Of a DNA stretch of 62,103 bases, positions 16,143 through 54,959 are shown one piece after another. Source of the DNA: Clostridia bacterium (GTDB lineage Bacteria > Bacillota > Clostridia > Oscillospirales > CAG-272); the NCBI GenBank assembly GCA_017428635.1, contig JAFRQK010000022.1, positions 1-62,103 of the forward strand. The letters run 5' to 3'. The first letter of the stretch is position 1, and the number at the start of each line of letters is the position of its first letter. A model generated the notes under the pieces. The model had not been told where the DNA came from, ran no database searches, and was given only the letters and a program-made list of their open reading frames with translations. The position numbers and the translations under genes were made by a program.

Positions 16143-16171
16143 TTGAAAACCGCCTCTGCGTTTGGTATAAT
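16143..16171 (+). promoter_or_regulatory. promoter of uvrB
   Basis: TTGAAA (16143-16148) and TATAAT (16166-16171) with a 17-base spacer. Transcription would start near 16178, downstream of the only TTG in the uvrB frame, which is itself the -35 box. I see no LexA-type GAAC-N4-GTTC operator here. Confidence 0.75.
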
Positions 16172-16205
16172 ATACGGTAGATATATTCAAAAAGGGGGCG
16201 AGAGT

Positions 16206-18194
16206 ACGGACAGATTCGAACTGCACGCGCCGTTTGCGCCGACGGGAGATCAGCCCGAGGCGATCGAGGCGCTGACACGCGGCCTTCAGGCCGGACTCAA
16301 GGAACAGGTCCTTCTCGGAGTTACCGGTTCGGGCAAGACGTTCACGATGGCGAACGTGATCGCAAACGTCAACCGTCCTACGCTCGTTCTCGCGCATAAC
16401 AAGACGCTCGCTGCCCAGCTCTGCTCCGAATTCAGAGAATTTTTCCCGAACAACGCCGTCGAATATTTCGTTTCTTATTACGATTACTACCAGCCCGAAG
16501 CATATATCCCCGGGAAGGATATGTATATCGAAAAGGACGCTCTGATAAACGACGAGATCGACAAACTGCGCCACAGCGCGACGTCGGCTCTGTTCGAGAG
16601 GCGGGACGTAATAATCGTCTCTAGCGTTTCATGTATCTACTCGCTCGGTTCTCCGCTCGAGTACAAACGTCAGGTCATCGGGCTGCGCGTCGGGATGAAT
16701 ATCAGCCGCGACGAAGTCGCCGCGAAACTCGTCGACGTAAAGTACGAGCGCAACGATATGAATTTCGTCAGAAACAATTTCAGGATGAGAGGCGACGTTC
16801 TCGAGGTCTATCCGTCCGGATATTCCGAAAAAGCGCTCCGCATTGAGTTCTTCGGCGACGAGATCGACAGGATCTCGGAGATCAATCCGCTCACGGGGGC
16901 GGTCAATGCGGATCTCAACTACGTCCCGATATACCCCGCGACCCACTACGTTATCGACCAAGACAGAAAAGAGGAAGTTATAAGGCAGATCCTTCTCGAA
17001 ATGGACGAGCGGGTCGATTATTTCCGCTCGCAGAACAAGCTTCTCGAGGCGCAGCGGATCGAAGAGCGAACGAGATACGACGTCGAGATGATAAGAGAGA
17101 TCGGGTACTGTTCCGGGATCGAAAATTACTCGCGGGTATTCGCAGGCAGAGAACCGGGGTCGACGCCCTATACTTTGCTCGATTATTTCCCGGACGATTT
17201 CGTTCTCTTCGTCGACGAGAGCCACGCGACGCTCCCCCAAGTCAGAGGAATGAGCGGCGGCGACGTTGCGAGAAAGAGAAACCTCGTGGAATTCGGTTTC
17301 CGCCTGCCGTCCGCATACGACAACAGACCGCTGTACTTTGAGGAGTTCGAGGAAAAGCTCGGTCAGGTGATATGCGTTTCGGCGACTCCGGCGGAATTCG
17401 AACTGTCGAGAGCCGATCAGGTCGTCGAACAGATAATCCGCCCTACGGGTCTTCTTGACCCCGAAGTCGAAGTTCGCCCGGTCGAGACGCAGATCGACGA
17501 TCTCATAGGCGAGATAAACGAAAGAGTGTCGAGAGGCGAAAGAGTGATCGTCACGACGCTTACGACAAAGATGGCGGAGGACCTGACTGATTATCTTGAA
17601 GGACACGATATCAGCGTCAAATACATCCACCACGAAGTCGAGACGATGGAGAGAATGGAGATCCTGCGGGATCTGCGCCTCGGCGCGTTCGACGTTATCG
17701 TCGGGATCAACCTGCTCCGCGAAGGGATCGACCTGCCCGAGGTAACGCTCGTCGCGATCCTCGACGCGGACAAAGAGGGTTTTCTCAGAAGCGAGACCTC
17801 TCTGATACAGATGATCGGACGCGCCGCGAGAAACGTCGGCGGAAAGGTCATCATGTACGCCGACCGCGTGACCGATTCAATGAAACGCGCCATCGACGAG
17901 ACGGCGAGAAGAAGAAAGATACAGTCGGAGTACAACGAAAAGCACGGGGTCACCCCTCAGACGGTCAGAAAAGACGTGAGAGAACTGATCTCGATCGGAA
18001 CTGCGGAAGACGGCAAGCGAGGAAAAGGACGGGGGAAGCGCTCGGAGCGAACTCCGGCTCCCGTCACGGCAAAAGAAAAAGACCGCCTGATCGCGCAGCT
18101 TGAAGGCGAGATGAAAGAGGCGGCTAAACTGCTGAGATTCGAAGAAGCGGCATATCTCCGCGACAGGATAAAAGAATTAAGGGGAACAAAATAA
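16206..18194 (+). CDS. uvrB: excinuclease ABC subunit B, apparent ACG start
   Basis: UvrB is the DNA damage recognition helicase of nucleotide excision repair. From 16206 the product is 662 residues, the normal family length. The P-loop GVTGSGKT lies at 38-45, the beta-hairpin [10 protein letters not shown] follows near residue 92, the helicase motifs are complete, and a C-terminal UVR domain ([12 protein letters not shown]) binds UvrC. No ATG, GTG or TTG lies at the expected start: the conserved N-terminus ([16 protein letters not shown]) is preceded by ACG at 16206, seven bases after an AAGGGGG Shine-Dalgarno (16192-16198). The only in-frame TTG upstream (16143) is in the promoter. The gene is convergent with the MATE gene, 17 bases apart. 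Confidence 0.93.
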
Positions 18195-23950: not shown

Positions 23951-24023
23951 AGCTACTGGCCGGACTCGAACCGGCGACCTGCTGATTACGAATCAGCTGC
24001 TCTACCAACTGAGCCACAGTAGC
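23951..24023 (-). tRNA. tRNA-Thr (anticodon CGU)
   Basis: A 73-nt sequence folds as a complete tRNA on the minus strand. The 7-bp acceptor pairs GCTACTG with CAGTAGC, the D stem is GCTC/GAGC with a GG-containing loop, and the anticodon stem GCTGA/TCAGC has loop TTCGTAA. The T stem is GCCGG/CCGGC with loop TTCGAGT, and the discriminator is U. The anticodon CGU (23988-23990 on the plus strand) reads ACG threonine codons. CCA is not encoded. It has its own consensus promoter and an abutting terminator. Confidence 0.95.

Positions 24024-45303: not shown

Positions 45304-45313
<10 letters not shown>
44993..45313 (+). CDS. V-type ATPase subunit H (peripheral stalk)
   Basis: A 106-residue, almost wholly coiled-coil Ala/Glu/Lys-rich protein, of the size and position of archaeal AhaH, a peripheral stalk partner of subunit E. 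I start at TTG 44993, eight bases after GGAGG; a start at 44927 would add 22 residues that lack a ribosome binding site. It is the first gene of the operon and overlaps subunit I by 10 bases. Identity rests on operon position and composition, since the sequence is low in complexity. Confidence 0.8.
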
Positions 45314-47780
<2,467 letters not shown>

Positions 47781-47804
47781 TAAATCAATACAAAAGGTGT
47801 CCTT

Positions 47805-48473
47805 ATGAACAACCTTAATCTCATTCTCGAAAAAATCGCGGCGGAAAGTCAGGAAAAGATCGACGCGGCGAATGAAGAGAGAGACAAAAGGATCTCCGAG
47901 ATCGACAGGGCTGCCGAAGACAAGATAAGCGTCATCCTTTCGCGCGCCGAAAGCGCCGCGCTGAAAGAATACGAAACAGAGGTCGCCCGCGCCGAGTCGG
48001 CCGGTAAACTTGCCGAAAGAGAGATCATCCTCTCGGCTAAATCCGCGCTCGTAGATCAGGTCTTCTCAGCCGCCGCGGACCGCATACGTTCTCTTCCCGA
48101 CGAAGAATACGTCGCAACCCTTGCGCGCCTTCTCGCCGGAGCGGTGATCGAAAGGCAATCAGCCGTCGAAGCCCTCATTGAGAAATACGGTGAGGAAGAA
48201 TACGGCGCCGACGCGGGACTTCCGTACGACGCTGCGTTTTCTCCCGAAGACACGGAAAAGTTCGGCCGCGAAGTCATCTCCAAAGCGGAACAGCTGATCG
48301 CGAAACGCGATCTTCTCGTCCCGAGGATCCGTCTTGCCAAAACGCCCGCCGATATCGACGGCGGAGTCATCGTTAAGTACGGCGAATCCGAGACGAACTG
48401 CTCCGTAGAGGCTATGATCGCCTCCGCAAAGGAAAAAGCGGACGCGGAAGTTGCGGCGATCCTCTTTCCGTGA
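47805..48473 (+). CDS. V-type ATPase subunit E
   Basis: A 222-residue peripheral stalk subunit. The N-terminal 80 residues are a long charged coiled coil; the C-terminal globular half ends in a GGVIVKYGE-type strand typical of subunit E. With subunit H it forms the stalk linking the A/B hexamer to subunit I. It lies 24 bases after subunit K and 15 before subunit C. Confidence 0.88.
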   Translation: MNNLNLILEKIAAESQEKIDAANEERDKRISEIDRAAEDKISVILSRAESAALKEYETEVARAESAGKLAEREIILSAKSALVDQVFSAAADRIRSLPDEEYVATLARLLAGAVIERQSAVEALIEKYGEEEYGADAGLPYDAAFSPEDTEKFGREVISKAEQLIAKRDLLVPRIRLAKTPADIDGGVIVKYGESETNCSVEAMIASAKEKADAEVAAILFP

Positions 48474-48488
48474 TAAGAGGGCGTCCGT

Positions 48489-49496
48489 ATGAAAAAAGCG
48501 AAAAAGATAAACGAACTTGATTACGTATACGCCTCGACGCGAGTGAAAACGGCGGAGGGGCGCGGGACTCTTCGCGACAGACTGACCTCGTTTGCGGAAG
48601 CCTCGAACGGAGAGGCGCTCGTCACGGCAGTCCTCGAATCGGGCCTTATCTCGGACGTTGCGGTCAAAACGCCCGCCGACGCCGCGGACGCGGCTCTCGT
48701 CGGAGCCGCGGATCTTCTGAGATCATCCGTTCCGGATCCCGACTTATACGGTTTTCTGTTCTACAAATACGACTGCAACAATATAAAAGTCGCGCTCAAA
48801 GAGAGTATTCTCGGCGTCGAAGATACGTCCCGGTATTTCACGTGCGGGACCGTCGAGCCGTCCGCAGTGCGCGAAGCGGTCTTCTCCCGCAATTACTCCG
48901 CCCTTCCCGAAAACATGGGAAAGAGGGCGAAAGAGGCGCAGGACGCATACGAGACGACGAAAGAAGCGCGTACGATCGATCTGTCCCTTGACCGCGGATG
49001 TTTCGAGGATATCGAAGAGTCCGTCGCGTCGTCCGGCGTTCCGTTTTTCAAAGAATACGCCTCCGCGCTCGTTGACTCGACGAATTATCTTTCGTTTTTG
49101 CGGATCTCGTCTTCCGGAATGGCGCCCGGAGCGTGTTCCTCTCTCATGAGCCGCGCCGCTCTTCCCGGCGGAACGGTCGACGTTTCCGTGTTTGAGGAGG
49201 CGTCAGCCGCCGATACGCACGAAGAGCGCATCGCAGCGCTCGTTTTGAAGACCGACAGCGTCGACTACCGCGAAGCGCTGAGCCGGGACGGGGATCCCGA
49301 CGCCGTTGCCGCCGCTCTTGAAAAAGCGGTTGACAAAGTAGTCGAAAAAGCAGACGCAAAAGCGTTCGGCCCCGAAGTACCCGCCGTCTTCTTTATCAGA
49401 AGAGAGGCGGAGGTAAGAGCCGTGAGGATCGCGGCGTCCATGATCGCATCCGGGAAAACCGCCGAAGCGATCAAAGCCCGTATAGGGATCAAATGA
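48489..49496 (+). CDS. V-type ATPase subunit C (rotor socket)
   Basis: A 335-residue helical subunit of the V-type C/AC39 family. It has the early YVYASTRVKTAEG segment, a DLYGFLFYKYDCNNIKVALK segment and a helical C-terminus ending in IRRE...VRAVRIA and a final GIK. It couples the central stalk (D and F) to the K ring. Sequence identity in this family is low, so the call also uses operon order. Confidence 0.88.
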   Translation: MKKAKKINELDYVYASTRVKTAEGRGTLRDRLTSFAEASNGEALVTAVLESGLISDVAVKTPADAADAALVGAADLLRSSVPDPDLYGFLFYKYDCNNIKVALKESILGVEDTSRYFTCGTVEPSAVREAVFSRNYSALPENMGKRAKEAQDAYETTKEARTIDLSLDRGCFEDIEESVASSGVPFFKEYASALVDSTNYLSFLRISSSGMAPGACSSLMSRAALPGGTVDVSVFEEASAADTHEERIAALVLKTDSVDYREALSRDGDPDAVAAALEKAVDKVVEKADAKAFGPEVPAVFFIRREAEVRAVRIAASMIASGKTAEAIKARIGIK

Positions 49497-49529
49497 TCTG
49501 TCGCCGCGCTGCGGCGGAAGGAGGCCAAT

Positions 49530-49838
49530 ATGGCTAAGGTAGCCGTCGTCGGACGGGAAGATAATATCCTTTGCTTTCTCGCGTCCGGGTTCCGCGCCTT
49601 TCCGGTGAACGGGACCGACGAAGCGAAAGAAGCCGTCAGACGCGCAAAAAAAGAAGGCTGCGACGTGATCTTCGTCTCCCCCGAACTTGATGAAGTCATC
49701 GGCTGGGCGGACGAAAAATACGGCGAGTCCGTCACTCCCGCGGTCGTCCCGCTCCCGCTCGGATCGGGCGACAAAGCGAAGGAAAGGCTGACTTCGTTCG
49801 TGGAACGCGCCGTCGGCGCAAACATTTTAGGCGACTGA
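49530..49838 (+). CDS. V-type ATPase subunit F
   Basis: A 102-residue Rossmann-like small subunit of the central stalk that sits on subunit D. It has the VVGREDNILCFLASGFRAF start, close to the family pattern, and a VIFVSPEL strand. It lies between subunits C and A. Confidence 0.9.
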   Translation: MAKVAVVGREDNILCFLASGFRAFPVNGTDEAKEAVRRAKKEGCDVIFVSPELDEVIGWADEKYGESVTPAVVPLPLGSGDKAKERLTSFVERAVGANILGD

Positions 49839-49872
49839 TGATCAGTTGAAATAACGAAAGGATCTGTCCTCT

Positions 49873-51639
49873 ATGACTGAAGGAAAAATCGTTAAGATCT
49901 CCGGACCGCTCGTCGTTGCAGAGGGTATGCGCGAGGCGAATATGTTCGACGTCGTCCGCGTCGGAGAAAAGAAACTTATAGGCGAGATCATCGAGATGCA
50001 TTCGGACCGCGCCTCGATCCAGGTTTACGAGGAGACCGCGGGTCTCGGCAGAGGCGACTCCGTCGTCTCCGCGGGCGAGCCGCTCTCCGTCGAACTCGGT
50101 CCCGGCCTTATCGGGAACATCTACGACGGTATCCAGCGTCCTCTCGAAGAAATGAGACTCGTAGCGGGGCCGAATATCATCAAAGGTATCGATCTGCCGC
50201 CTTTGAACAGAGAAAAGAAATGGGAATTCGTCGCGACCGCCAAGATCGGCGACGAAGTGACCGGCGGCGATATCGTCGGTTACGTCGACGAATCCCTCGT
50301 CATACGCCACAAGATCCTCGTCCCCCCGGGAGTTTCGGGAAAGATCGAGTATCTTCTCTCCGGAAACTACACCGTGACGGACAAGATCGGAGAGATCGTC
50401 GACGAAAACGGCGAAAAACGCGATCTGACGCTCATGCAGAAATGGCCCGTCAGACGCGCGAGACCGTACGTTGAAAAGATCGCACCCTCCGTCCCCATGA
50501 TAACGGGTCAAAGAGTCATCGACACGCTGTTCCCCATCGCGATGGGCGGTACGGCTTGCGTTCCCGGTCCTTTCGGATCGGGCAAGACCGTCGTTCAGCA
50601 TCAGCTCGCCAAGTGGAGCAACGTCGACCTCGTCGTATACATCGGATGCGGCGAGCGCGGAAACGAAATGACGGACGTTCTGCGCGAATTCCCGGAGATA
50701 ATCGACCCGCGTACCGGAAAATCTCTTATGGAGAGGACCGTTCTCATAGCCAACACGTCCGATATGCCCGTCGCGGCGCGCGAAGCGTCCGTCTACACGG
50801 GTATCACGATAGCGGAGTATTTCCGCGATATGGGACTGTCCGTCGCAGTTATCGCGGACTCGACGTCGCGCTGGGCAGAGGCGCTCCGCGAGATGAGCGG
50901 ACGACTTGAAGAGATGCCCGGCGACGAGGGCTATCCCGCATACCTCACCTCCCGTCTCGCGGGCTTCTACGAGAGAGCGGGTCAGGTCAAGTGCATCGGG
51001 TCGGACGGAAGATTCGGATCGCTCTCCGCGATCGGCGCGGTTTCTCCGCAGGGCGGCGATATCTCGGAGCCCGTCTCTCAGGCGACGCTCCGAATCGTTA
51101 AGGTCTTCTGGGGACTTGATTCCGCGCTCGCATACGCGCGCCACTTCCCCGCCATCAACTGGCTCAACTCCTATTCCCTCTACAAAGACAGACTTGAGGG
51201 ATGGTACAACGAGAACATCTCGAAAAAATGGTCAAAGTACTCCGCGGAGATACTCCGAATCCTGCAAAAGGAATCCGAACTCGACGAGATCGTCAAGCTC
51301 GTCGGCGTCGACGCGCTGTCGGGCGACGACCGTCTGACTCTCGAGATATCCCGTTCGATCAGAGAGGACTTCTTGCAGCAAGACGCTTTCAACATCGAAG
51401 ACTCGTTCACTTCCCTGCCCAAACAGTTCGCGCTGATAGCCCTGATCCTCTTCTTCCGCGACCGCGCTAAAGAGGCGATGGACTCCGGTGCCGACGTACA
51501 GAGGATCTCCGAACTTCCCGTAAGGGAGGATATCGGACGCGCGAAGACAGTGAGCGACGCTGAGTACCGCGAAGTCTTCGACAGCATCAAGGAAAAGATA
51601 GAACAATCGCTTGCGGAAATAACTCCCGGCAAAGCGTAA
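49873..51639 (+). CDS. V-type ATPase catalytic subunit A
   Basis: A 588-residue catalytic subunit. The P-loop GPFGSGKT lies at 232-239; the non-homologous insertion typical of A subunits (about 110-190) and the GERGNEM catalytic glutamate segment are present. Three copies alternate with subunit B and hydrolyse or make ATP. It follows subunit F by 34 bases and precedes subunit B by 18. Confidence 0.97.
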
Positions 51640-51657
51640 GAAAGGGGTACGGTTCAG

Positions 51658-53040
51658 ATGATCAGAGAATACAGAACGATAGAAGAGATCGCCGGCCCTC
51701 TTATGCTCGTGCGCAAGGTCGACGACGTCAAATACGACGAACTCGGCGAGATCGAGCTTGAAAACGGCGAAGTCAGGAGATGCCGCGTTCTCGAAGTGAA
51801 CGGCTCGAACGTGCTTGTCCAGCTCTTCGAGGCGTCCGCGGGACTGAATCTCGCGCGCTCCAAGGTGCGTTTCTCCGGCCACGGCGTCGAACTCCCCGTT
51901 TCGGACGATATGCTGGGCCGCGTTTTCTCCGGCATGGGCAAGCCGATCGACGGCGGGCCGAAACTCATTCCCACCGCGTCGCTCGATATCAACGGCACAC
52001 CGATCAACCCGGCTGCCCGCGACTACCCCAACGAATTCATTCAGACCGGCGTTTCGACGATCGACGGGCTGAACACTCTCGTCCGCGGTCAGAAGCTCCC
52101 GATCTTCTCGGGATCGGGCCTTCCGCACGCGAATCTCGCCGCACAGATCGCCCGTCAGGCGACCGTCCGCAGCGAGGGCAGCGAAAAGACCGAATTCGCG
52201 GTCGTTTTCGCAGCCGTCGGTATCACGTTCGAAGAAGCGGACTTCTTTATAAGCGATTTCAAACGGACCGGAGCGATCGACAGAACGGTCCTGTTCATCA
52301 ACCTCGCCTCCGACCCCGCTATCGAGAGGATCTCGACGCCGAGAATGGCGCTGACAGCCGCCGAATATCTCGCGTTCGAGAAGAATATGCACGTGCTCGT
52401 AATAATCACCGATATCACGAACTACGCGGAAGCGCTCCGCGAAGTCTCCGCGGCGAGAAAAGAAGTCCCCGGACGGCGCGGATATCCCGGATATCTTTAC
52501 ACCGACCTTGCGACGATGTACGAGCGCGCCGGCCGTAAGATGGGCTCGACCGGTTCGATCACAATGATCCCGATCCTCACGATGCCCGAAGACGACAAGA
52601 CGCACCCGATCCCCGACCTCACGGGGTACATCACCGAGGGTCAGATAATCCTGTCCCGCGAGATGCACAGAAAAGGCTATATGCCCCCCGTCGACGTTCT
52701 TCCCTCTCTTTCGAGGCTCAAGGACAAGGGTATCGGCAAAGGAAGAACGCGCGAGGACCACGCCGGAACGATGAACCAGATAATCGCGTGCTACGCCAGA
52801 GGACGCGACGCGAAAGAACTCATGGTAGTCCTCGGCGAAGCGGCGCTGACACCGCTCGACAGACTTTACGCAGCGTTTGCGGACGAATTCGAAAAGAGAT
52901 ACATCAATCAGGGCTTTTACGAGAACAGATCGGTCGAGGAAACGCTCGACCTCGGATGGGAACTTCTTAAACTTCTTCCCCGCAGCGAGATGAAGAGGAT
53001 CAACAGAGATATTCTCGACAAGTACTGGCCGGAGGACTGA
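51658..53040 (+). CDS. V-type ATPase subunit B
   Basis: A 460-residue non-catalytic nucleotide-binding subunit. In place of a canonical P-loop it has [12 protein letters not shown], as expected for B subunits. It alternates with subunit A in the hexamer. Length and start are typical. Confidence 0.97.
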
Positions 53041-53064
53041 ATTTCCCGAAAGGCGTGACTTTTT

Positions 53065-53721
53065 ATGGCTGAAATAAGAGTCAATCCCACGAGGATGGAG
53101 CTGAAAAAGCTCAAAAACAAACTGAATACGGCAAGGCGCGGGCACAAACTTCTGAAGAACAAGTGCGACGAGCTGATGAAGCAGTTCCTCGAGGTCGTCA
53201 GAGAGAGCAAAACTCTCAGGGGTCGGCTTGAGGGAACTCTTGCCGGCGTCGTTGAGGAATTCGGTTACGCCGCGGCGGAGACCGATCCCCGCGTTATGAC
53301 CGAAGCGCTTCTGCTGCCCGGATTCGAGGGTGAGGTCACGACGGAGACTAAAAACGTGATGAGCGTCATCGTCCCCGTGTTCCGCCACAAGGAATCCGAT
53401 CCTTCGGCGCGCGGCGGCGTCAGTTACGGTTTTGCCTTCACGAGGCGTTCCATCGACGCGGCAGTGAGGGAGATCTGCGCCTCGACGGAGGATCTCGTCC
53501 GTCTCGCATCGCTCGAAAAGCAGGCTCAGCTTCTCTGCTCCGAGATCGAAAAGACGAGAAGAAGAGTCAACGCGCTCGAGTACATCCTTATCCCGCAGTA
53601 TACCGCGACGATAAAGTCGATCTCGATGAAACTCGACGAAAACGAGCGCTCGAATCTCACCAGACTTATGAAAGTCAAGGATATGATGCTCGAAGGCAGA
53701 AATTCGGCAACAGACAAATAA
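53065..53721 (+). CDS. V-type ATPase subunit D (central shaft)
   Basis: A 218-residue protein with long N- and C-terminal helices, beginning VNPTRMELKKLKNKL and containing LLKNKCDEL, both family signatures. It forms the rotating shaft inside the A/B hexamer. It is the last gene of the nine-gene operon and is followed by a terminator. Confidence 0.95.
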   Translation: MAEIRVNPTRMELKKLKNKLNTARRGHKLLKNKCDELMKQFLEVVRESKTLRGRLEGTLAGVVEEFGYAAAETDPRVMTEALLLPGFEGEVTTETKNVMSVIVPVFRHKESDPSARGGVSYGFAFTRRSIDAAVREICASTEDLVRLASLEKQAQLLCSEIEKTRRRVNALEYILIPQYTATIKSISMKLDENERSNLTRLMKVKDMMLEGRNSATDK

Positions 53722-53726
53722 TCAGC

Positions 53727-53762
53727 CGGGGGATCGTTTCCGCGTTCCCCCGATCTTTTTCC
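53727..53762 (+). terminator. terminator of the V-ATPase operon
   Basis: Perfect 7-bp GC stem (53727-53733 with 53746-53752) followed by ATCTTTTTCC. The glycosyltransferase start codon lies only 19 bases further on, so some read-through may feed that gene. Confidence 0.7.
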
Positions 53763-53780
53763 CGGAAGCGGGGTGATAAT

Positions 53781-54959
53781 ACGAAAATACTGATAACGTC
53801 CACCTGGTACGCTCCCGTCATAAACGGAGTCGTGACCTCTGTCCTCAACCTTAAAAAGGGACTTGAAGAACTGGGTCACGAAGTGCGAGTGCTCACTCTT
53901 TCCAAGAACATCCACTCTCACCGGGAAGGCGACGTCACGTTCGTCGGGTCGGTGAGCGCGAGCAAGCTCTACCCCAACGCAAGAATGAAAATGACGAGGG
54001 CGAGACAACTCGTGAAAGATCTGATCGACTGGCATCCCGATATCGTTCACAGCCAGTGCGAGTTCAACGGATTCCACGCGGCGAGGAAGATCGCCGAGGC
54101 GTGCGGAGCGCCGCTCGTCCACACTTATCACACCGTTTATGAGGACTACACGCATTATTTCTCGCCGAGCGAAAGGCTCGGAAAAAGTTTCGTAAAAACT
54201 CTTTCGCGTTCGATCCTCAACAAGACCGATATCGTTATCGCTCCGACGCGTAAAGTAGAGGAGCTCCTTCACAGGTACAGAGTAGCCGTACCGATCGTCA
54301 CCGTCCCGTCGGGCCTCGATCTGTCGCGTTTCGACGATCCGGAGATCGGCGAAAAAAGCAGAAACATCAGGCGCGGTCTCGGGATCGGGGACGAAAAGCG
54401 CGTTCTCGTTTATCTCGGGCGGCTCGCGAAAGAAAAGAACACGGAAGAACTTATTTATCTGCTCAAAGAAGAAAACGACCCCGATATGATCCTCGTCATA
54501 GTCGGGGGCGGTCCCTACGGAGAAAAACTCGAGGAATTCGCCGAAGCGATGGGCGTTTCGGACAGAGTTCATTTCGTCGGTATGGTCCCGCCGGAAGACG
54601 TCGCGTACTACTACAGGCTCGGCGACGTGTTCGTCAGCGCGTCTCAGAGCGAGACGCAGGGGCTGACGTACGTCGAGGCGATGGCGAGCGGGCAGGCGGT
54701 CCTCTGCAAAAAGGATCCGTGCCTTTCGGACCTGATCACCGACGGCGTCGACGGATTCCAGTACACGACCGGAAACGAGTTCGGCGAACTGCTCGCAAAA
54801 CTGTTTGAAAGTGAAGAATACCGCAGGAGGATCGGAGACGCCGCGGCGGAGAGCGTGCGGGAGAGATACTCGATCGGGTGTTTCGCGCGTTCCGTTCTGG
54901 ACGTCTACGAAACCGCGCTCAAAGAAAGAAAAAACCGAGGAGGTAAAAATAATGCTTGA
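53781..54959 (+). CDS. GT4 family glycosyltransferase, apparent ACG start
   Basis: A 392-residue GT-B fold glycosyltransferase resembling diglucosyl-diacylglycerol or 1,2-diacylglycerol 3-glucosyltransferases. The N-terminus KILITSTWYAPVINGVVTS is the family's conserved first strand, and the C-terminal half has the SASQSETQGLTYVEAMASG nucleotide-sugar motif. No ATG, GTG or TTG precedes this strand in frame; the codon in the initiator position is ACG at 53781, seven bases after GGGG of an extended Shine-Dalgarno (GGGGTGAT, 53770-53777). A start at the first GTG (53832) would remove the first strand of the fold. Its last eight bases overlap the SGNH hydrolase gene. A role in glycolipid or wall polymer synthesis is likely. 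Confidence 0.9.
   Translation, partial: TKILITSTWYAPVINGVVTSVLNLKKGLEELGHEVRVLTLSKNIHSHREGDVTFVGSVSASKLYPNARMKMTRARQLVKDLIDWHPDIVHSQCEFNGFHAARKIAEACGAPLVHTYHTVYEDYTHYFSPSERLGKSFVKTLSRSILNKTDIVIAPTRKVEELLHRYRVAVPIVTVPSGLDLSRFDDPEIGEKSRNIRRGLGIGDEKRVLVYLGRLAKEKNTEELIYLLKEENDPDMILVIVGGGPYGEKLEEFAEAMGVSDRVHFVGMVPPEDVAYYYRLGDVFVSASQSETQGLTYVEAMASGQAVLCKKDPCLSDLITDGVDGFQYTTGNEFGELLAKLFESEEYRRRIGDAAAESVRERYSIGCFARSVLDVYETALKERKNRGGKNNA

What the first reader, a model, noticed from the sequence alone, without database searches (positions are those of the whole stretch)
53765..53835. A second ACG start, in the GT4 glycosyltransferase gene
The first beta strand of the glycosyltransferase (KILITSTWYAPVINGV) is preceded by ACG at 53781 with GGGGTGAT spaced seven bases away. 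The first standard start codon (GTG 53832) would delete that strand. Together with uvrB this makes two independent genes in 62 kb with ACG exactly where homologues have ATG, both with the same spacing. That argues against chance and suggests this lineage tolerates ACG initiation (it also uses TTG often: 1798, 3764, 8593, 8856, 19585, 43456, 44993).
Basis: partly seen in the sequence, partly recalled or inferred. Interest (0 to 1): 0.75.

Follow-up and report, generated by a model that had tools for sequence, protein, structure and literature searches.

The report
Bacterial genes starting at ACG codons
In this uncultured bacterium and its closest relatives a small set of ordinary genes seems to begin at the codon ACG, a triplet that gene-finding programs do not accept as a start, so such genes are probably annotated too short.

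Summary
ACG 53781 stands 7 bases after a strong Shine-Dalgarno (SD) sequence at the exact N-terminus of a GT4 glycosyltransferase, with no ATG/GTG/TTG anywhere upstream in the frame and the next one 17 codons inside. A second species (91% identical protein) keeps both SD and ACG while the surrounding DNA has diverged, so it is no sequencing error.

uvrB also has SD plus ACG in three species; but in two of them an in-frame ATG lies 8 codons upstream, so only this genome's copy is clear-cut.

A codon-blind scan of 27% of this genome (515 coding ORFs) found four more: a DeoR-type regulator, a GNAT acetyltransferase, FtsQ and a DNA-deoxyinosine glycosylase, whose nearest relatives have ATG, GTG or TTG at or near the same place. 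Controls (606 genes of E. coli K-12 and GTDB relatives) gave none. Initiator tRNA looks ordinary; IF3 shows no obvious lesion.

Best explanation: ordinary fMet-tRNA(CAU) initiates at ACG despite a second-position mismatch, helped by strong SDs and often U at -1. Recurrent ACG initiation looks like an undescribed variant of known non-canonical bacterial starts (infC AUU, sigR GTC). There is no protein-level proof.

The parts
53781..53783 (+). ACG, proposed start codon of the GT4 gene
53770..53777 (+). GGGGTGAT, extended Shine-Dalgarno sequence, conserved in G001
   Evidence: duplex with a generic anti-SD tail -14.9 kcal/mol
53781..54959 (+). GT4 glycosyltransferase gene, read from ACG to TGA
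   Evidence: Pfam Glyco_transf_4 116.4 and Glycos_transf_1 120.9 bits; best NCBIfam model MGlcDAGSynMgs 202 bits, below its cut-off 400
16206..16208 (+). ACG, proposed start codon of uvrB
16190..16198 (+). AAAAGGGGG, Shine-Dalgarno sequence of uvrB (AAAAGGAGG in G001 and G002)
16206..18194 (+). uvrB, read from ACG
   Evidence: TIGR00631 1049 bits, profile 1-658 on residues 2-658 after the ACG
16143..16171 (+). sigma-70-like promoter TTGAAA-17-TATAAT; its first hexamer contains the only in-frame upstream TTG

Best explanation
ACG is a genuine translation start codon in a small recurrent set of genes of this clade, about 1% of the genes in the sampled part of this genome. SHOWN by sequence: the position is homologous to standard starts; ACG is kept in sister species; SDs are strong with spacing 7-9; in five of the six genes of this genome there is no in-frame ATG/GTG/TTG upstream at all, and in uvrB only the one in the -35 hexamer; T at -1 in 5 of 6; the initiator tRNA has a CAU anticodon and GGG:CCC stem. 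INFERRED: the 30S subunit is held by the strong SD duplex; fMet-tRNA(CAU) pairs with A1 and G3 of ACG with C.A at the second position, in most cases helped by U(-1):A37; the protein begins with Met, at lower yield than from AUG. Because ACG is weak and presumably IF3-sensitive, these genes would be held at low expression or be tunable by IF3.
For: Sister-species conservation: GT4 2 species, DeoR 3, GNAT 3, FtsQ 3 (shifted 4 codons in G002), uvrB 3. Of these the instances without any competing in-frame standard start nearby are, outside G000, GT4 and GNAT in G001 and DeoR, GNAT, FtsQ in G002. Homologues have standard starts in the same column: uvrB 19 of 24 other relatives, the other 5 one or two codons upstream; DeoR TTG in 9 of 9 other genus members with a match. 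Codon-blind scan of G000: 6 of 10 genes with strong SD and no standard start have ACG, 6 of 14 candidate codons against 2.85% background, P 1.3e-6. Controls 0 of 232 (E. coli K-12) and 0 of 374 (80 GTDB loci); E. coli infC ATT recovered at a lower threshold. SD scores above those of ATG genes (P 0.0008) and T at -1 in 5 of 6 against 49 of 169 (P 0.011). Ordinary initiator tRNA.
Against: No protein or ribosome data. uvrB of G001 and G002 has an in-frame ATG 8 codons upstream (SD 2.5) about 9 bases after the TATAAT, which could be a leaderless start; DeoR of G001 has ATG 5 codons upstream; FtsQ of G001 has GTG as next codon with SD 8.3; GNAT of G007 and G004 have in-frame upstream ATG. The glycosylase ACG is seen in one genome (GTG in G001, G002). 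The G001 scan gave 1 of 503. Scan thresholds were mine and set after the finding; outside the window 4 of 463 against 0 of 606 gives only P 0.035. An E. coli reporter gave ACG 0.1-1.5% of ATG (PMC6925171, passages); IF3 was reported to tolerate only Watson-Crick pairs at codon positions 1 and 2 (PMC10158994, abstract).
Confidence: 0.8

Rival explanations
1. A standard codon elsewhere is used: an internal ATG/GTG, or in some species an upstream ATG (for uvrB of G001/G002 perhaps as a leaderless start), and the SD-spaced ACG is incidental.
For: Upstream in-frame ATG in uvrB of G001 and G002 (-8), DeoR of G001 (-5), GNAT of G007 (-10) and G004 (-6); GTG directly after ACG in FtsQ of G001.
Against: In G000 five of six genes have no upstream standard codon; internal ones lie 17 to 47 codons in, with SD scores 2.5-5.8. 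For GT4 and uvrB they would remove conserved N-termini. The SD lies at spacing 7-9 from the ACG, not from the upstream ATGs (scores 2.5-3.0).
Confidence: 0.1
2. Amino-terminal drop-off and re-initiation: fMet-tRNA pairs badly with ACG, falls off, and translation begins at the second codon, giving proteins without Met.
For: Described in a reconstituted E. coli system for poor codon-anticodon pairs (PMC10158994: abstract and one section).
Against: Nothing in the sequence separates it from ordinary initiation; ACG itself was not among the pairs in the section I read.
Confidence: 0.05
3. A different tRNA starts at ACG, for example Thr-tRNA(CGU) or a changed initiator.
For: A tRNA-Thr(CGU) gene lies in the window at 23951-24023.
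Against: It reads as an ordinary elongator; the one initiator-type tRNA seen has anticodon CAU (which read 30 of 40 tRNA matches; the other 10 are long class II-sized genes).
Confidence: 0.02
4. Sequencing or assembly error, or C-to-U editing of the mRNA to AUG as in plant organelles.
For: ACG to ATG is one transition; organelle editing of ACG starts exists (PMC9845219, passages).
Against: The same ACG recurs in independent species assemblies; C-to-U mRNA editing of this kind is not known to me in bacteria (recalled).
Confidence: 0.02

Closest known systems
Streptomyces sigR, GTC start codon under IF3 control (PMC5472188; outline and Discussion read)
   Same: A conserved non-canonical start behind an extensive RBS (AGGAGGTG), mis-annotated in databases, in an ordinary gene.
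   Different: One gene; GTC. Here ACG, mismatched to the CAU anticodon at the second position, in at least six genes. IF3 control was tested there, not here.
infC AUU/AUC/AUA start codons (E. coli and others)
   Same: Weak start codon behind an SD; the scan recovered E. coli infC ATT, and infC of this genus appears to start at ATC or ATA.
   Different: AUH codons mismatch at the third position and serve IF3 autoregulation.
Staphylococcus aureus AUU/AUA starts with extended SD (PMC13009471; passages)
   Same: Conserved non-canonical starts, all with extended SD, lower initiation efficiency.
   Different: Codons named in the passages are AUA (infC) and AUU (cvfC1); shown there by Ribo-Ret. No ACG in the passages seen.
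ACG starts in plant organelles and in eukaryotic viruses and cells
   Same: The same triplet at the start position.
   Different: Organelle ACG is edited to AUG (PMC9845219, passages); eukaryotic use (titles in its reference list) has no SD.

Membership tests
Natural non-canonical start codons of bacteria (infC, sigR type) | Codon other than AUG/GUG/UUG at the position homologous to standard starts | tested here: met
Natural non-canonical start codons of bacteria (infC, sigR type) | Conserved across species | tested here: met
   five of six genes in at least one sister species; the glycosylase ACG in one genome only; some sister instances have a competing standard codon
Natural non-canonical start codons of bacteria (infC, sigR type) | Strong SD at optimal spacing | tested here: met
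   scores 8.6-10.5, spacing 7-9 in G000
Natural non-canonical start codons of bacteria (infC, sigR type) | Translation shown to begin there | not testable with these tools
   needs proteomics or ribosome profiling
Natural non-canonical start codons of bacteria (infC, sigR type) | Repressed by IF3 | not testable with these tools
   no expression data
Altered initiator tRNA (anticodon CGU) | Initiator-type tRNA with an anticodon matching ACG | tested here: not met
   initiator at C50 has CAU (30 of 40 tRNA matches read)
GT4 glycosyltransferase | Glyco_transf_4 and Glycos_transf_1 domains above Pfam cut-offs, with the N-terminal strand | tested here: met

The most novel reading that the evidence does not exclude
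ACG is a standing additional start codon of a bacterial clade, not a one-gene oddity: exchanged with ATG, GTG and TTG in evolution, rescued by strong SDs and by U(-1):A37 pairing, and used in roughly 1% of genes (of order 20 per genome by extrapolation from 6 in 27%), so the bacterial start-codon table and current gene finders are incomplete for such lineages.
Probability: 0.6. Interest if true: 0.78.

Novelty: new variant of a known kind. Interest (0 to 1): 0.7.

Why it matters
The bacterial code table and the common gene finders (as I recall them) do not allow ACG, so these genes are truncated or mis-started in databases; UvrB here would lose its N-terminus. A second-position mismatch is the kind that IF3 was reported to reject, so recurrent natural use would make the limits of start-codon selection testable with evolved examples, in which weak codons are offset by SD strength and base -1. 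It also gives a simple comparative search that can be run over all prokaryote genomes.

Tried and rejected
Considered and rejected or left weak: consensus error; internal starts; the upstream TTG of uvrB (it lies in the -35 hexamer); an altered initiator tRNA; an obvious IF3 lesion. IF3 of G000-G002 differs from most genus mates at several residues of unknown meaning, so a subtle change is not excluded. A pattern search for SD plus TACG at spacing 6 over the own genome gave 26 matches against 7 for the reversed control; 2 of the 26 loci passed an open-frame and coding filter: one (L412) is internal to a gene, in the other (L431) GTG follows the ACG, so it adds nothing firm. That pattern does not cover spacing 7-9. 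Lowering the SD threshold to 7 or 6 added no further ACG case in G000. An ortholog comparison of G000 and G001 (158 gene pairs scored) returned ACG at the best-SD position only for uvrB and GT4. Candidate C11:1079 was set aside as internal (standard codon 12 bases on). A looser scan listed one ACG in the GTDB loci (L131, near a contig edge); the stricter filter removed it. Conservation of the third base of ACG is only weak support, since fourfold sites of the six genes are 66% (G001) and 59% (G002) identical. The claim that natural ACG starts in bacteria are not in print rests on listings of nine searches of an open-licence library. Hecht 2017 is not held; Esposito 2003 was seen only as a reference.

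Full report
WHAT IS THERE. At 53781 the GT4 gene reads GGGGTGATAAT-ACG-AAA-ATA-CTG, the protein continuing KILITSTWYAPVINGV. It has both GT4 domains; the nearest NCBIfam model is alpha-monoglucosyldiacylglycerol synthase, 202 bits, below its cut-off of 400. No ATG, GTG or TTG lies in frame between the upstream stop and the ACG; the next is GTG 53832, SD score 2.5.

NOT AN ERROR. Of 59 relatives searched, 54 had some GT4 match. I examined the start of the ten best loci including the window's own: ACG in G000 and G001, ATG in six, TTG in one, and one (G045) inside a longer frame. G001 is another species of the genus, 91% identical; it carries AAGGGGTGATCCT-ACG-AAA-ATA while the intergenic DNA differs and has indels. 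In 80 GTDB loci whose match begins at residue 1: ATG 66, TTG 8, GTG 2, CTG 2, CTC 2, ACG 0 (80 is the cap of the call, more were found).

UVRB. AAAAGGGGGCGAGAGT-ACG-GAC at 16190-16211. Of 30 uvrB loci, 27 had the anchoring motif and 3 were dropped. ACG stands in G000, G001 and G002. The other 24 have ATG (14), GTG (3) or TTG (2) in the same column, or a standard start one or two codons upstream (5); one of those five, G017, has ACG in the column behind its ATG. In G000 the only in-frame upstream standard codon is TTG 16143, part of a TTGAAA-17-TATAAT promoter match. Against my reading: G001 and G002 have an in-frame ATG 8 codons upstream of the ACG, with SD score 2.5 and about 9 bases after the TATAAT, which might serve as a leaderless start. 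The SD at spacing 7 from the ACG in all three, and the column of the homologues, favour the ACG.

GENOME SAMPLE. I held 629,954 bases of G000 (607,751 not N, 27% of 2,269,191), window included, and 596,815 of G001 (572,279 not N). A scan treating all codons alike asked for a coding boundary, an SD score of 8 or more at spacing 6-9 and no usable ATG/GTG/TTG. In 515 coding ORFs of G000, 10 genes qualified and 6 had ACG; of 14 candidate codons 6 were ACG against 2.85% background, P 1.3e-6 (thresholds set). The six: uvrB, GT4, FtsQ-like (C14:8164), DeoR-type regulator (C41:44151), GNAT acetyltransferase (C41:22912), DNA-deoxyinosine glycosylase (C46:81636); names. With a coding model trained on the sample alone: 5 of 513. 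The window holds 52 of the 515 ORFs and two of the six cases. The G001 sample gave 1 of 503 (GT4); its uvrB failed the upstream-coding filter.

RELATIVES OF THE FOUR NEW GENES. DeoR, 16 of 16 rows: ACG in G000, G001, G002; TTG in the nine other genus members; ATG in G046 and G045; ATG one codon upstream in G014; GTG one codon downstream in G037. In G001 an ATG lies 5 codons upstream, inside the SD. GNAT, 13 of 27 rows (more distant ones not shown): ACG in G000, G001, G002, G004, G007; ATG in 7; TTG in 1. G004 and G007 also have in-frame upstream ATGs and are ambiguous. Glycosylase, 7 of 8 rows: ACG in G000, GTG in G001 and G002, TTG in G044, displaced starts in three. FtsQ, 5 of 23 rows: ACG in G000; ACG followed by GTG (SD 8.3) in G001; ACG four codons further upstream at SD spacing 8 in G002; GTG in G007; ATG in G011. 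Instances with no competing in-frame standard start nearby: in G000 all but uvrB's -35 TTG; in G001 GT4 and GNAT; in G002 DeoR, GNAT and FtsQ.

CONTROLS. The same scan found 0 ACG starts in 232 genes of E. coli K-12 (five 50-kb stretches; a sixth was fetched and left out) and 0 in 374 genes of the 80 GTDB loci; at SD 6 it recovered the ATT start of E. coli infC. 6 of 515 against 0 of 606: P 0.009; 5 of 513: 0.020; outside the window, 4 of 463: 0.035. These are modest. An earlier, looser scan listed one ACG in the GTDB loci.

MACHINERY. One initiator-type tRNA was seen, anticodon CAU, GGG:CCC stem (30 of 40 tRNA matches read). In 23 of 24 relatives' loci searched with the anticodon-loop pattern it is found, in most with the same anticodon arm. 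infC is found in 12 of 12 genus genomes; 11 loci were aligned and appear to start at ATC or ATA, so IF3 autoregulation is probably intact (inference). IF2 and 16S rRNA were not inspected.

HOW IT PROBABLY WORKS. The ACG genes have strong SDs: median score 9.9, against 6.8 for ATG genes; against ATG genes at 7 or more P 0.0008 (the ACG set was selected at 8 or more, but a threshold of 7 or 6 added none). Five of six have T at -1, against 49 of 169 ATG starts, P 0.011. TTG starts show the same T bias in G000, 12 of 18, P 0.002; in G001 it is weaker, 6 of 14. Pairing of U(-1) with A37 of the initiator tRNA is a known proposal (Esposito 2003, seen only as a reference; content recalled). I infer that SD pairing and this fourth pair offset the second-position C.A mismatch. 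Against it: IF3 was reported to tolerate only Watson-Crick pairs at positions 1 and 2 (PMC10158994, abstract), and an E. coli reporter gave ACG 0.1-1.5% of ATG (PMC6925171, passages). So yields are probably low, or the clade is more permissive in a way not visible here.

NOVELTY. Known natural cases: infC, sigR GTC (PMC5472188), S. aureus AUU/AUA (PMC13009471), with strong SDs in the two papers read. In the listings of nine searches I saw no title or abstract on a bacterial gene with a natural ACG start; full texts were not gone through. I file it as a new variant of non-canonical initiation: a different codon, a different mismatch position, several genes in one clade.

Noticed in passing
window 53727-53760; L010 1443-1466: A GC-rich hairpin followed by a T-run (AUCUUUUU in G000) lies between the upstream gene and the GT4 SD; G001 has a hairpin of different sequence at the same place. 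It looks like a terminator or attenuator, though the terminator scan did not list it.
   Followed up: partly
window 45304-53721: The genes before GT4 are a V/A-type ATPase operon (subunit I, c, E, C, F, A, B, D by Pfam), and a GDSL-lipase-like gene overlaps the GT4 stop at 54952.
   Followed up: partly
infC loci L286-L296: infC of this genus appears to start at ATC (G000-G002, G006, G007) or ATA (others), a shifting non-AUG start within one genus.
   Followed up: partly
G000 sample: TTG starts with strong SD have T at -1 in 12 of 18, against 49 of 169 for ATG: a general sign that weak starts favour U at -1.
   Followed up: partly
G000 C46 stretch L169, positions 582-587: A membrane-protein-like ORF with a strong SD and TCT/ATC but no standard start at spacing 6-9: a possible ATC start.
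   Followed up: no
L431 (G000 C73 near 21741): AAGGGGGTATCCT-ACG-GTG-AAC: an ACG followed by GTG at a likely lipoprotein-like gene start, as in FtsQ of G001; the start cannot be told.
   Followed up: no
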